Shown: one piece after another, positions 5,361 to 59,106 of the stretch
Layout of the letters: each line of letters starts with the position of its first letter
Numbering within the stretch: position 1 is the stretch's first letter
Source of the DNA: Ascidia mentula
Lineage: Eukaryota; Chordata; Ascidiacea; Phlebobranchia; Ascidiidae
Direction: 5' to 3'
Assembly: GCA_947561715.1 (NCBI GenBank)
Contig: OX387198.1
Span: 11,842,001-11,906,000, forward strand
Length of the DNA: 64,000 nt
The notes under the pieces: generated by a model
Told to the model about the DNA's origin: nothing
Database searches by the model: none
Seen by the model: the letters and a program-made list of their open reading frames with translations, nothing else
Translations under genes and position numbers: made by a program

Positions 5361-8300
5361 ATGGAATACTCAAGCACATCAAGTGCCAGCAATAGCGACG
5401 ATGATGTACACGAGAATACAACAACCAAGCCTAACACTGACACTACTATGAGTTACCTTAAACAATGGAAGTTTTATTTTGATGATGAAGAATCATCGAG
5501 TAAAAACAACCTCTTACAAAGGCTCAGGAGTAAAGCTTTCAAGGAAAGCCTGAGAAGTTGTCATTTCAGAAGCATTTGTTGGAGAGTATGTTTATATTTT
5601 TTTATGTTCCCATTAGCTTGTATATGGGCTGGCAAAGCTAACGATTTTGTAATTGTCTGTTCATTATTTTCAGGTGTTCTTGGGGTGCCTGCCACAGGAT
5701 TTGGACGATTGGCATGATGCTGCCTGTAGGTCTAGAGATACCTACACCAAAATCAAGTTAAAACACATTGAAAATGCAAAAGTAAATGATGACAGCTCTA
5801 ATATCGAAGTTGAAAACCCACTGTCACAAAATGTTGAAGTAAGGCAGAAATTTAAATTTTCCAGAAAATATTTTTTGACGATAATTTGTTGCTTTGAAGA
5901 GCTCATGGTCTCAATTTTTTCGAAACAATGAATTGAAGACACTTATAGAGCGGGATGTTTCCAGAACGTAAGATGAATTTAAAACAATATGTAAGATTAG
6001 TCATGGCCACAATGCAATAAACATGTAAAATTATGTAAAAGATGCTGAAACATATGTTTTCTGTAAAATCAAATTTCTTTACCTAATTTTCGCTAAAAAT
6101 TGCATATATTTGTAATTTGTTGGCCTGCACTTGAAACATTGCATTGTAATGAAAATGGTATAGTCAAATAGGATAATTAACAGACGTTTTTCAAAAACGT
6201 TGCATATTTCTGCATTAAATCTAGAGTTATTTCGTTTTGCTTTGTGCTGCTGTGATGCATTAGTGAGTTGCAACTATGTTGGCAGATATTTTAAGATTTT
6301 ACTTTCCAACTATTACCCCATTACTTGGGGTAATTATTGGACACATGTGGGGTAGTTGCTGGACAGTGTACTAAACTTGCCAAATCTATGCTGTTTCCGG
6401 TGAATTTCAAACAAGTTTACAACCTATTGTTCAATGACATGTGGTAATAAAGTGTCGACACTGACATATTCCATATTTTGTGGGTTTACTTAATATTTTT
6501 TTTAATGTCTGTTAATTTCTTGACACTGCTAATTTGTTGATGTCTATGCACCTCATAAATTCCTGCTATTCCGTAGTTTTATTGGTTTTTGTATCTATTT
6601 TCTAGGCATTCTTATTGAGGTTATTGCATTTACATACAGGAACGGGCAAAATGGAATAACACACTATTCTAGAACAGTTAATTTGAATCCAAAACACTGC
6701 ATCATGTTCTGTTTTTGCTGGTTGCATAATAATGTAATTAACTGTTTTCAAAAGAATGTATACTCTCTCAATTGTTACATGCCATTGAAGCCATGTTTCT
6801 GAAGAGAAAATAGGTGAAAAAATAATGTGATGAAATTTGAGACAAAGTTATAAAACTTGATTGTTTGATAAAAATTGGAATTTGACTTCGAATGGCTTAG
6901 GATTTAAATCATCCACATGTTTTATTATATACCACTCAAAACAGTTGGTACTTTGATATTAATACATGGTGTCAGTGTCCAATACTTACCCCAGAAGACA
7001 AAAATGTGCATGGGATAATTATTTTTCTAAGGTACTAGGTAGAGGTTTGGATTAACCTTCATTGAAAACTTAAGGGCTTGACCTGCCAGTGATTCTTAAG
7101 TGAAATTTTAAATCATTAAACACTGTAAAATTTTAATAAATTACTATATCCACTTAGTTTGAAAAAGTTCCGGAAATGAACCCCTTCTACAATTTTTTTT
7201 TGATCAATGTTTTACAGAAGAAACAACACATGGTATTTTTAACTATAAAAGGCTTACAGCTCACCACATGCACAAAATAAAGTTTTAGGGAGCCATAATT
7301 TTATTTCTATGGTGGCGTCCACTAATTACCCCATAACTTTAACTGTCCGATAATTACCCCAACTTACTTTTATATGCAATATGGAGCCAATAATATGAAT
7401 TGTGTATAAGCTGCAGACAGCAAAGGCCGTTTGGTCAGCAAAGCCGTCTTATGGTCACACCAGCTGCACTGATGAGACCTTTTAGGTCGAAACAGTGGCC
7501 ATCTGTCTGCAGCTTACTTTTATATGTTTGCTACTCCAACATTTGAAACAAAAAAGTTTAATTATGTAATAACAAAAACGTGCGTATCTCTAACTTACAA
7601 CAAATATGTAGGTGCCCAGAAATAGACTTTTATCACACGGACAAGGTGCACAACATGATGGCTAACATATTGTTTTGTTATGCTCGTGAACATGAGAAGT
7701 TGTCATATCGACAAGGAATGCATGAGCTACTTGCCCCTTTAATATTTGTTCTGCATTGTGACTTACAAGGTGCTGCTCATGCCAAAGATATGGGTACACT
7801 TCCGTAAGTTTTGCCATTTGATGTTTTGTTATTCTACACATCAATTTAACTATAAACACCGTGTTTTTAGGAAAATTGTGACTGATATGCTCAGTGAAGA
7901 TTATCTGGAGCACGATGCATAGTAAGTGACTGAAAAATGTGTGAAAAGTAATTTAAATAGTGTTGACCTATTTTTAAACAGTGTAAATAATTTGCTTTTG
8001 TAGTGTCATGTTCTCTAAGGTAATGGATGCCACAAACGGGTGGTATGCAGTTACTGAAATTCCACCCCAAACTGAGGAAATTGTTGATACAAAAGAGCAG
8101 TCACCTATTCCCACTGTTCCCTTTCAATCCAATGGGGTAAGGCTTTACTGGTATAATATATATCATTTGGTTTGCAAATAATACCTTGTTTACTCTGTTT
8201 CAGGACAACATACAAAGCCCCCCATTGGAAATTACGAATAAACTGAATCATATTCATGAAACCCTGGTGGCGAAGCATGATAGAGAACTGCACCACCACT

Positions 8301-54500: not shown

Positions 54501-57500
54501 TCATTTTGAGAAACAGAAGGGCATCGAAACATTGAAGGTGGTTGCAAGTTTGAGGTCGAATGGGAAGACTCATTCTCATTTTACCAAGCTGTACAAAAAC
54601 TTTATGTGAGGATTGTGAGAGCAATTAAGATAAAGTACACAGTTCAGAAGCATCAAAAGCTTGACTGGAACTAGTCTATTTACTGTATATATGTAATCCC
54701 CATAGTTGAACATCTCTACAAAAAAATCAATAGTTATCGAGGAATAAAAACAAAATAAAATCACGTGTTACAAATGACCTTTAGCAACAAATTTTTTCGC
54801 ATGCTCACTTTAAAACAGCGGAAAAACAGTGGAGGTTAAATACTTACAGGGCAAAGTAAGGAAACTTCTAAACTTGTTGTAGAAATGTCAGAATCGCTAT
54901 CGACAGCTAACTTTCGCTGGATAATTGAGCGAGACTGGCTAGCTGGAATAATTGCTCGCTTTTTTAGTTTTGTGTGGAGGTCCTCAGCTGTTACTTGTCG
55001 AACGATGTTAATTACTGCCACATAATTCTAAACAACACACAAGAGTGTCAATGCAATAGCATAGTGAGAATTTGTGTTAAAGCTTAAAAAAATGCCAGAA
55101 TCGACTACTGGTTTTACATAAAGTGTGGTCTAACAGTTACAAGTTGTTGTAAGTAACAATGGATAATGTTAGTAGGACAAAAATAATTGTATTCAAGACT
55201 TTGTTAGCATTAAATATTTTTTCGTTTTAATGGACAGTCATGATTTCCCAAATGCAGATATACAGTATTTGTACATGGTCATAACCAACATTTAGTTGAA
55301 CAGCATTTGGTAGTTTGGATCATACACCACCCACCTTGCCAGAATCGGCAGACCACCGAATGTCGAGAACGTTGGAATGGTAGCTCGATCCATAGCACAA
55401 GGTGGTAATATTGATTGGACGGTTGGGTCGCTTTGGATCCACCCCAGCCTTGGTTGGTGGCACGAAAGGTGGCAAATTCGCCGCAATCGAGTTGACCTTA
55501 ACAAATATGTTTTTCTACTTAAAGCAAAAGCTTTCCAGAAAAATACATATATGTCCCTGACAAACTTTTGATATAAATGGCTCATAGAAAACAACAAAAT
55601 AGAATTCCTGCAAACTGCACTTTTAACATTTTTTTGTGTGTACACTTTTTCACTTATTAATGATTTCACAGTCTATTTATGTGTTGTATAACAATTACTA
55701 ATGGTATTAAATATTACTTTTTACCAGCATATCATTCCCGTATGAATGTGAACAAAGTTATAGGAAACTTGATTTAAAACTGTGATAATAAAATGTCCAT
55801 ACTGATGGTAACACAACAAATCAAATAAAATACCTTAATGTTAAGATTTTGAGGAAGCTGGTCTGGCTGCTCTGTACTTGTATCCAACACACAAATACTG
55901 AGAATAACAAAGAATATTGTGTTACTTATGTGCAGTTAAATCATATTTGTGTTTGGCAATTATTAAGGTTTGCATTCAAACACATTGTCAAGTAAGTTTT
56001 GAAGTTAAAGTTGCCCCTAGTTTTAAAACACATTCTTCACACCCAAAACATCATATCAAAAGTCTATCATCAACTTATACTATTACAAACAATGATGGCT
56101 TCAAATCAGGGGGAATGGTGGTCTGCACAATGCCATGTTTACCAACTTTTAGATACAAGTTTAAAAACCACACAGTTCTAAATAAACAGGGGATTATTTC
56201 GCAACAGTGGCACTTCCTTACCGGAATTGAACCTGCAATGCTGAGTGTTTGGTCAAGTATCTTTTTGCATCATGCATTGGTCGATTTCCATTGAGCTCAT
56301 GGACTTGTTGCGATGTAAAATGAAAAATAAATCGTTCTTCTTTGATGAGACGTCCGTTGTACCCAACTGCAAACAGGAGTTTGTTTACATTTCACATGAC
56401 AGCGCACAATAAACATATTTGCATTCTGTGACAGACAAATGACTTTTTTCAAGAGGCAATAATAATGAAAAGTTTTATGTCAAAGATTGTCAATTGCTTT
56501 TTCTTGAGCACTTATTGTTTTTATGGTTTCAATTAACGAAAATATAACAACTTACAAGATTGTTTTATTTTACATTCATTGACAAAATTATATTCATCAC
56601 AATTAAGCACGTAACATGGTGTCTGGCCATTTTGTTAATTGGAAGCCCTGCTATTTTTAGAACCAAAGCAGTTCACTTGTTGCCAACTCTAAGCAAACAA
56701 AATCCTTACACAAAGGTGAAGGTTTGAGGACATCAGAAACAAATTCATAAAAGGGCAAAGGAGAGAACTTCACATTCACACATTTGTCTTCTTCTTTGGG
56801 ATGCTCAGAGTTGTTGTTATTGTGAGAAATATCCCTAAAGAAAAAGGTTTGTCTCTGATATCACATATCATATAAAATAGTGCTATACTAGCAAGGTAGC
56901 AAGGATTCAAAAGTATGCACTAATCTTAGATGTCTTTGATAGAATATAGTTAGGAATGCCTTGTTTTTGGACTGCTGAATGATTTTTTGACACTGGTTTG
57001 AACTAGTGCTCTGCGACCAGTGAATCATTTCTATGTATGCACTATACAACCATTTAGGTATTGAACCAATTTTACATTGTCGCAGATGGGCAACTAACTA
57101 ACCCAAACTCTAGAAACGCTGTAACTGATCATTACAGAAATTTTAACTTTATAAACCTGTTGGGGTTGATGTGCTTTGGGATACGTTGTATTAACAAAGT
57201 AAAAAAGGTCTGCTGAGCACAGTTTTAGTCAACAAGTCAATGAATTCATGCACACAATATAAAAAGGTATAAAGTTTACCTTTGGTGACCATTATCCCTG
57301 TTCATTTCCTGGTTTCTTGAAAGAGAGTGAGGAAACCGCTTTCCATATAAATCAACAATCTTTGACCGGATCTACAAAAGAACTTTAAGTACAGCTGCCA
57401 GAACACACATGAATAAACTTCATATTTTAACAGACGTCAGTATTAAGGTTGTGAAAAACATAACTAAGCATTTAGACCAGGGGTGGGGAACCTTTTTAGT

Positions 57501-59106
57501 ATTGCGGGCCACATAAAATGAGAAATAACACAGGCGGGCCACTGAAAATTTCGAAATTTTATTTACAGATAAAAAATGCAATGCATTGCATTCTTTCACG
57601 AATTCTCCATCTGCATGTGGTTTCAGCTTCTTCGCTATCAGTTCAGTAACTTCATAACTCGTTCTGACAATATCTTCATCCTGTTTGCAGCACCTTGACA
57701 AAGTGCTTTGCTGCGCTTGTAACTCTCTTTTAAGGACACTAATCTTATTCTGCCTCGCCTGCCCTGTTAGCTGTTTCAGACTACCATGGCAGGAGTCATA
57801 ATGACGCTCTAAACTTGTTTTCTTCTTTGCTGCTACAGATTTACCACAAACAATGCACACAGGTTTGCCACTTACTTCAACAAAGAAGTACGAGTTTGTC
57901 GAATCTTTCTGGAACATTCTGCCTTCATCACCAATCTTTCTTTTCTTTCCAGAAGCCATTACACAACTTAAAATTTTGTACACATTGTCGCGGGCCACAT
58001 GGGCCGCAGGTTCCCACCCCTGATTTAGACACTCGCCATTGGCGGATTGGTTTCCTGTCACCACCCAGTCACCACACCCCCCAGACTCAATTATTTATTC
58101 TAGATCCGCCATGGCCAATTGTAAACTTCTAATAAAACAAAAACTTTTAAGTGGGTTTATACATAGGTGTGCTGTTCGTGTAATTTAGAGGATAAAAAAT
58201 GCAAATCCAAGACAAGTGTTAGTGCATAAGTGGTGGGTGTGCAATACAAAAAAGTTTTTTAGATGGAACTAACAATGTTTCAGCTCAATGGCTAAAACTT
58301 TTTTACATCGAAAAATTTTATGATGCTATATTGCATATGCATCACTAGAACTGTGACAGCATAATATGCACTTAATCGCTCTAGTCTTTAAGGTATGACC
58401 TTGTTGAATCATAATACAACACAAGTAACATGAAATAAAGCTACACAATTCATGAGTCACAAGTGGTCTTTTGTTACAACCTCTACCAAACAATTTTAAC
58501 AGTGATGAAATGTGCATGAGCCTTATTTTCTAACCGAGCTGTTGGTGCCACTAGATCTGATAAGTTGAAGTGCACGAGACATTAGTTCGTGTTTTCTGCC
58601 GCTTTTGTTTCTGCCCGCGTGTCCAAGGAGAACTTGCAGCTCGGAAACTCGAAAACACATCACCATGTTCTAAAACAAAAGGTACCACAATCAACCCCAG
58701 TGAGAACGGAAAATTGATGGAAAACAAACAAAAAAATCCAACATGCCATGCTTTGGTGCAAATACACAAAACACTTTATAACATGGAATATAATAAATCA
58801 TGCTGTGTGTTTGAACAAAATATTGCATTGGTTATTATGCCAAAGCATGGTAAAGCTGGAGTTGTGTGTAAGTATTTTTACATTATGCATATGTATTGTA
58901 GGTTTTAGGGATACTATCCTAAGGAAAGACTTTGATTTTAAAAAGAATTGATTTATATCCATATCAATGCCAAATATTCAGCAACATCCAAAGCAAATAT
59001 TTCGGTAAAAAAACAAAACAAAATAATTAGGTGTGTGTATGAAAACCTTTTTGTTTGTAACGCTTACCTTCATTTCAGAATCAATGTCCACCTGAGTGGA
59101 CGTCAT
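51577..59106 (-). CDS. PIAS: PIAS family SUMO E3 ligase
   Basis: Complete model of 732 residues in 13 exons: 59106-59068, 58669-58535, 57371-57280, 56832-56711, 56366-56222, 55897-55834, 55496-55335, 55027-54848, 54588-54494, 54226-54036, 53598-53452, 53143-52969, 52228-51577. PIAS proteins transfer SUMO from UBC9 to nuclear substrates. Domains in order: SAP DNA-binding motif (about 15-55, [21 protein letters not shown] with one break), PINIT domain with PINI at 226-229, SP-RING with C328, H330, C333, C351 and C354 (TCNHLQCFD ... WKCPVC), and SUMO-interacting motifs VVIDLS (419-424) and VIDLT (479-483) followed by an acidic Ser/Asp stretch. A Pro/Ser-rich tail of about 215 residues ends the protein. 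The tail is longer than in human PIAS1 (651). Phases agree at all junctions. Exon 3's neighbour intron hosts a hAT element. Confidence 0.95.
57478..58022 (-). mobile_element. hAT-type element with BED zinc-finger ORF, internally deleted
   Basis: A 545 bp element in PIAS intron 2. Perfect 8 bp target duplication ATTTAGAC (57470-57477 and 58023-58030). Terminal repeats CAGGGGTGGGGAACC (left) and CAGGGGTGGGAACC (right, reverse-complemented), followed on both sides by GCGGGCCACAT or its GCGGCCCATGTGG variant. The minus strand keeps an open frame starting [16 protein letters not shown] near 57960. It contains a BED-like zinc finger (CIVC ... HYDSCH) and the start of a transposase-like domain. The catalytic part of the transposase is missing, so the element is non-autonomous. 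Short length and intact termini suggest fairly recent insertion. Confidence 0.88.

What the first reader, a model, noticed from the sequence alone, without database searches (positions are those of the whole stretch)
7408..7526. Complete type I hammerhead ribozyme motif in a TBC1D5 intron
Every conserved core position is present (CTGATGA, GAAA, GUC triplet). All three stems pair, and stem I is a perfect 7 bp helix. The fold with short stem III matches the class known from Penelope-like retroelements. The cleavage site would also be hidden by a competing 13 bp inverted repeat at 7408-7420. The unit is bounded by 14 bp direct repeats, as if inserted. On the sense strand it could cut the TBC1D5 pre-mRNA intron or generate a small RNA.
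Basis: partly seen in the sequence, partly recalled or inferred. Interest (0 to 1): 0.78.

Follow-up and report, generated by a model that had tools for sequence, protein, structure and literature searches.

The report
Ribozyme mini-retrotransposon with Penelope-type insertion marks
The hammerhead ribozyme in this intron is one worn copy of a small non-coding jumping element with hundreds of copies in this animal genome, and the way its copies sit in the DNA points to Penelope-type retrotransposon enzymes as the machinery that moves it.

Summary
The motif is real: a type I hammerhead (HHR), stem I 7462-7468/7508-7514, cleavage after C7507. It misses Rfam cut-offs, but a strict descriptor finds it once in the window and 0 times in 60 simulated windows.

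It is not a solitary intron ribozyme. The insertion is 7377-7512 between perfect 14-bp target-site duplications (TSDs): a minus piece joined head-to-head to a plus piece of a ~285-bp repeat. The 45-nt HHR occurs 571 times exactly in the 196-Mb genome. Longer copies are [minus units][plus units] arrays: an animal non-LTR retrozyme.

New point: one outer end lies 5-20 nt and the other 40-49 nt past the cleavage site in 21 of 21 two-sided insertions with clear TSDs; 5 of 5 fetched later as a test agree. Nine of 9 Penelope-like elements (PLEs) measured in this genome also have 12-15-bp TSDs and one short, one long end, and an Anolis PLE starts reverse transcription at two such sites in vitro (PMC11167929). 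Retrozymes are thus most likely inserted by PLE enzymes primed from both broken DNA ends. The window copy is probably inert.

The parts
7363..7376 (.). left target-site duplication CTTACTTTTATATG
   Evidence: 14-bp exact match with 7513-7526
7377..7420 (-). minus-strand piece of the retrozyme unit; its outer (left) end is the long type, 40 nt past the cleavage site
   Evidence: BLAST to the tandem unit; end position
7421..7424 (.). four bases between the two pieces not assigned to either
   Evidence: gap between the two BLAST matches
7425..7512 (+). plus-strand piece of the retrozyme unit carrying the hammerhead; its outer (right) end is the short type, 5 nt past the cleavage site, with 4 further bases (CTTA) shared with the duplication
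   Evidence: BLAST match 7425-7516, 95.7%; end position and microhomology
7462..7514 (+). type I hammerhead ribozyme; predicted cleavage between 7507 and 7508
   Evidence: weak Rfam hammerhead matches
7407..7516 (.). span of the 14-bp inverted repeat (arms 7407-7420 and 7503-7516) made by the two opposite pieces; it competes with the hammerhead fold
   Evidence: folding
7513..7526 (.). right target-site duplication CTTACTTTTATATG
7619..7801 (+). exon of the host gene, TBC domain (context, not part of the element)
   Evidence: Pfam RabGAP-TBC E 8.8e-8

Best explanation
The feature is a short, probably inert insertion of an animal non-LTR retrozyme. Inferred life cycle: transcripts of tandem ~285-nt units cut themselves at the hammerheads, monomers are closed into circles, and a Penelope-like enzyme (reverse transcriptase plus GIY-YIG endonuclease) uses the RNA as template. 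A staggered break leaves 3' overhangs of about 12-14 nt. Each broken 3' end primes its own cDNA, one about 15 nt and the other about 44 nt past the ribozyme cleavage site. The two cDNAs grow towards each other, go part way or several times round the template, and are joined, usually by microhomology. The product is TSD - [minus units] - [plus units] - TSD. Shown here: the repeat family, tandem units, head-to-head order, TSDs, two-site ends, microhomology, and the same kind of signature in the PLEs of this genome. Inferred: that a PLE enzyme does it, the circular template, the 3' overhangs, and ribozyme activity.
For: 571 exact HHR copies. Tandem spacing 285-286 bp across six hammerheads in L056. 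17 of 20 fetched arrays are simple [minus][plus]. TSD of 9-14 bp in 25 of 29 insertions, 12-14 bp in 23 of 29. One short (5-20) and one long (40-49) outer end in 21 of 21 two-sided insertions with clear TSDs, and in 5 of 5 fetched later. Outer-end microhomology 1.72 nt against 0.58 with shuffled TSDs, 0 of 5000 shuffles as high. Inner junction overlap of 2 nt or more in 14 of 23, 15.8% expected. PLEs of the same genome: 9 of 9 measured have 12-15-bp TSDs and unequal ends downstream of a hammerhead; neighbouring GIY-YIG hits within 6 kb are 17 (-,+) and 0 (+,-); two intact frames have RVT_1 and GIY-YIG domains. An Anolis PLE cuts and extends both strands in vitro and starts at two adjacent internal RNA sites that match the genomic tail (PMC11167929).
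Against: The spacing of the two sites differs: about 29 nt in the retrozyme, 38-44 nt in 7 of 9 PLEs, with 65 in L081 and 27 in L085. No sequence kinship between the retrozyme and the four PLE loci compared beyond chance-level matches, so no particular PLE family is named. In vitro the Anolis PLE showed no difference in start site between top and bottom strands, started at sites not homologous to the cut DNA, and did not need hammerhead cleavage, unprocessed RNA being the main substrate; this tempers the one-site-per-end and circle readings. Eleven of 46 outer ends have no microhomology. A linear multimer could replace the circle as template. Ribozyme activity is untested, and Rfam scores are below cut-off.
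Confidence: 0.8

Rival explanations
1. A solitary functional intron ribozyme that cuts the TBC-gene pre-mRNA or releases a small RNA.
For: Intact core and stems in sense orientation to the gene.
Against: One of hundreds of dispersed copies, bounded by TSDs; the inverted repeat wins the local fold, -47.5 against -34.4 kcal/mol.
Confidence: 0.04
2. A retrozyme moved by a LINE-type enzyme with ordinary target-primed reverse transcription and twin priming.
For: TSDs of this length also occur with LINEs, and LINEs are named in print as possible movers of animal retrozymes (PMC11722881 passages).
Against: No A-rich or microsatellite tail at the ends printed; ends at two internal sites, one for each broken DNA end, as in PLEs (PMC11167929). 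No LINE of this genome was examined.
Confidence: 0.1
3. Retrozyme moved by PLE enzymes, but the head-to-head order arises by self-priming on an antisense template, as proposed for rotifer Penelope (PMC3846280 passages), not by priming from both broken DNA ends.
For: Proposed in print for Penelope; a head-to-head order fits.
Against: Self-priming predicts palindromes at the inner junction; the two inner ends are within 12 nt of each other on the unit in 3 of 22 cases, 1.9 expected. It does not predict microhomology at both outer ends.
Confidence: 0.08
4. A foldback or MITE-like DNA transposon that happens to carry a hammerhead.
For: Inverted repeats bounded by TSDs.
Against: Ends are not fixed, inner ends vary freely, units are in tandem, and some insertions are one-sided (L005, L009, L069, L072).
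Confidence: 0.02

Closest known systems
Animal non-LTR retrozymes (PMC7229834; parts 1-4 of 6 read)
   Same: Type I hammerhead, ~170-400-nt non-coding unit in tandem, no LTR, TSD longer than 4 bp, coexisting with PLEs.
   Different: Head-to-head arrays and two-site ends are not described in that text (the word 'inverted' occurs 0 times in it); the supplement was not seen. Circular RNA is shown there and not here.
Penelope-like elements with their tail (PMC3846280 passages; PMC11167929, parts 1-2 of 4)
   Same: Head-to-head halves, TSDs, one end with a 30-40-bp extension, reverse transcription starting at two internal sites downstream of a hammerhead.
   Different: PLEs encode the enzyme and, in this genome, have a hammerhead without stem III; the retrozyme codes for nothing and has a full hammerhead.
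Plant LTR retrozymes (described in PMC7229834 and PMC7761336 passages)
   Same: Non-autonomous, ribozyme-bounded non-coding unit.
   Different: Plant ones have type III hammerheads, LTRs, primer-binding site, polypurine tract and 4-bp TSDs.

Membership tests
Animal non-LTR retrozyme | Type I hammerhead with complete core | tested here: met
   Descriptor hit with stems 7/5/4; Rfam only below cut-off
Animal non-LTR retrozyme | Tandem monomers of about 170-400 bp | tested here: met
   285-286 bp in L056; arrays in L056-L075
Animal non-LTR retrozyme | No protein coding, low GC | tested here: met
   GC 47.2%, longest ORF 46 codons over three units; below the 50% of the paper's text, not below the 45% of its figure legend
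Animal non-LTR retrozyme | TSD longer than the 4 bp of plant retrozymes | tested here: met
   9-14 bp in 25 of 29
Animal non-LTR retrozyme | Tertiary contact between loops 1 and 2 | not tested
   No call addressed it
Animal non-LTR retrozyme | Self-cleavage and abundant linear and circular RNA | not testable with these tools
   Needs RNA; in a circular fold the hammerhead costs only 1.4 kcal/mol over the optimum
Penelope-like element (as a member) | Own ORF with reverse transcriptase and GIY-YIG domains | tested here: not met
   Longest ORF 46 codons
Penelope-like element (as a member) | Minimal hammerhead without stem III in the terminal repeat | tested here: not met
   This one has a 4-bp stem III; PLEs of the genome lack it
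Penelope-like insertion mechanism | Head-to-head halves with TSD, one end carrying a tail | tested here: met
   21 of 21 and 5 of 5; 9 of 9 PLEs measured
Penelope-like insertion mechanism | Initiation by a PLE protein at the two sites on retrozyme RNA | not testable with these tools
   Needs purified protein

The most novel reading that the evidence does not exclude
Retrozymes are parasites of PLE machinery, and each two-sided insertion records one complete reaction: a PLE enzyme, perhaps a dimer, engages one retrozyme circle, and each of the two broken DNA ends is extended from its own start site (about +15 and +44), never the same site twice, giving two rolling-circle cDNAs joined head to head. 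The short retrozyme insertions would then be a dense genomic record of how PLEs insert.
Probability: 0.6. Interest if true: 0.75.

Novelty: new member of a known kind. Interest (0 to 1): 0.6.

Why it matters
Which enzyme moves animal retrozymes is left open in the papers I saw: PMC7229834 calls PLEs a strong candidate, and a 2024 review still lists LINEs or PLEs (PMC11722881 passages). Here retrozyme insertions carry the two-site end signature that has been shown in vitro for a PLE, so the link becomes directly testable. The strict pairing of one short and one long end also bears on PLE mechanism: it suggests that the two DNA ends use the two RNA start sites in a coordinated way.

Tried and rejected
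Rfam on the window at gathering level: no match. Rfam on 13 PLE loci up to E 5: no match; descriptors requiring stem III also found none in the 15 GIY-YIG loci, but a pattern without stem III did find hammerheads in 10 of the 12 PLE loci scanned, all but L042 and L049. Conservation of the hammerhead: a first test on 35 loci (2 of 51 against 70 of 235 variable positions) was dropped because several loci had been chosen by a hammerhead match. Repeated on the 20 arrays chosen by a whole-unit query it gives 0 of 51 against 24 of 235 by insertion majority (p 0.011), but with all copies counted the hammerhead has proportionally more variable positions (25 of 51 against 65 of 235) though a lower mean rate (0.8% against 2.0%); selection on the ribozyme is only weakly supported. 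Organism: nine large contigs suggested the sea squirt Clavelina lepadiformis, but the chromosome lengths in PMC10884593 do not match (passages), and the ribosomal RNA search did not run; left open. Kinship of retrozyme and PLE sequence: chance-level only in the four loci compared. Rows dropped: L004 (complex) from all end counts; L002, L008, L010 and L073 lacked a clear TSD; one-sided L005, L009, L069 and L072 are not among the 21. L042, L049 and L076 were not measured for ends.

Full report
The observation. The hammerhead is present as described: stem I 7462-7468/7508-7514, CTGATGA 7469-7475, stem II 7476-7488, GAA 7489-7491, stem III 7492-7506, C7507. A strict descriptor finds this one site on both strands of the window and none in 60 simulated windows. 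No Rfam family reaches its gathering score; the two best weak matches are hammerheads.

It is a repeat. A 131-bp query gave 43 matches (1421 first-look candidates, 40 scored) and a 461-bp query gave 102 (2311 candidates, 40 scored); both counts are lower bounds. The 45-nt hammerhead occurs 571 times exactly and 0 times reversed. In L056 six hammerheads on one strand are spaced 285-286 bp apart. The unit is 47% GC with no ORF above 46 codons.

Layout. Of 20 fetched arrays, 17 are simple [minus units][plus units] meeting head to head; L069 and L072 are one-sided and L073 is rearranged. In the part of the list that was printed I count by eye 10 opposite-strand neighbours within 2 kb in the order (-,+) and none in the order (+,-). 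Of 29 insertions examined, window copy included, 25 have exact flanking repeats of 9-14 bp, 23 of them 12-14 bp. The window insertion is 7377-7512: a 44-nt minus piece, four unassigned bases (7421-7424) and a plus piece from 7425.

Two end sites. With TSDs removed, in 21 of 21 two-sided insertions one outer end lies 5-20 nt and the other 40-49 nt past the cleavage site. The window copy has 40 (left) and 5 (right, followed by four bases shared with the TSD). As a test I fetched five more (-,+) pairs from the list: by BLAST their short ends are at 13-17 and their long ends at 42-59, the 59 of L091 running on into its TSD; four have a clean 12-14-bp TSD, L087 only an ambiguous 9-bp one. L002 and L008 agree too (17/46 and 14/50) but have no clear TSD.

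Junctions. At 46 outer ends the TSD shares on average 1.72 nt with the next bases of the unit, against 0.58 when TSDs are shuffled among loci (0 of 5000 as high); 11 of 46 share none. Inner junctions overlap by 2 nt or more in 14 of 23 cases (15.8% expected, p about 1e-6), while 6 of 23 have no overlap. The two inner ends lie within 12 nt of each other in 3 of 22 cases (1.9 expected), so they are not snap-back palindromes in general.

PLEs of the same genome. There are 121 GIY-YIG matches (382 candidates, 150 scored). Two frames tested have RVT_1 and GIY-YIG domains. GIY-YIG neighbours within 6 kb are 17 (-,+), 5 (+,+), 1 (-,-) and 0 (+,-). Of 12 PLE loci scanned, 10 show a hammerhead without stem III. 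In the nine whose ends could be measured, 9 of 9 have TSDs of 12-15 bp and one short and one long end; the difference is 38-44 nt in seven, 65 in L081 and 27 in L085.

Literature. PMC11167929 (parts 1-2 of 4) reports that an Anolis PLE protein cuts and extends both strands and initiates at two adjacent internal sites that coincide with the genomic tail; it also reports no start-site difference between strands, no homology to the cut DNA, and no need for hammerhead cleavage. PMC3846280 (passages) describes head-to-head inverted ends, TSDs of 8-10 bp and the optional 31-bp tail, and proposes self-priming. PMC7229834 (parts 1-4 of 6) defines animal retrozymes and names PLEs as a strong candidate mover. 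In eight searches of the open library on this subject I saw no listed title or abstract that joins retrozymes to the two-site signature; two key PLE hammerhead papers (2014, 2017) are not held, so priority is not established.

Mechanism. A staggered break with 3' overhangs of about 12-14 nt, each 3' end priming on retrozyme RNA at its own site, accounts for the order of the halves, the outer position of the RNA 3' side, the TSDs, the tandem units, the variable inner ends and the two sites. The enzyme, the overhangs and the circular template are inferred. A linear multimer could also serve as template.

The window copy. Its hammerhead is intact, but over 7377-7526 the free fold is -47.5 kcal/mol against -34.4 with the hammerhead imposed, while for 7421-7526 alone the difference is 1.4. 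It has one hammerhead only. I expect no function in the host gene, a TBC-domain gene whose identity as TBC1D5 was not settled.

Noticed in passing
L076 (G000:C67:6139300-6147600): Two complete PLE frames of 892 codons and part of a third in perfect tandem (2870-bp period, 100% identical), next to inverted copies: a very young or recently homogenised PLE array.
   Followed up: partly
L051, L080, L086 downstream of the PLE hammerhead: By eye, three PLE families could form a hairpin downstream of the hammerhead with the short end inside its loop and the long end 3' of it; a possible binding site for the reverse transcriptase (sequences printed; not tested).
   Followed up: no
L042, L049 (G000:C67): A further PLE family with long inverted repeats in which the pattern for a hammerhead without stem III found nothing.
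   Followed up: no
window 7317-7361: Two 17-nt copies of a GTCC..TAATTACCCCA repeat 28 nt apart, just left of the insertion.
   Followed up: no
window 57420-58064 (-): ORF of 214 codons with a Spin-doc type zinc finger (Pfam zf-C2H2_12, E 1.3e-7).
   Followed up: no
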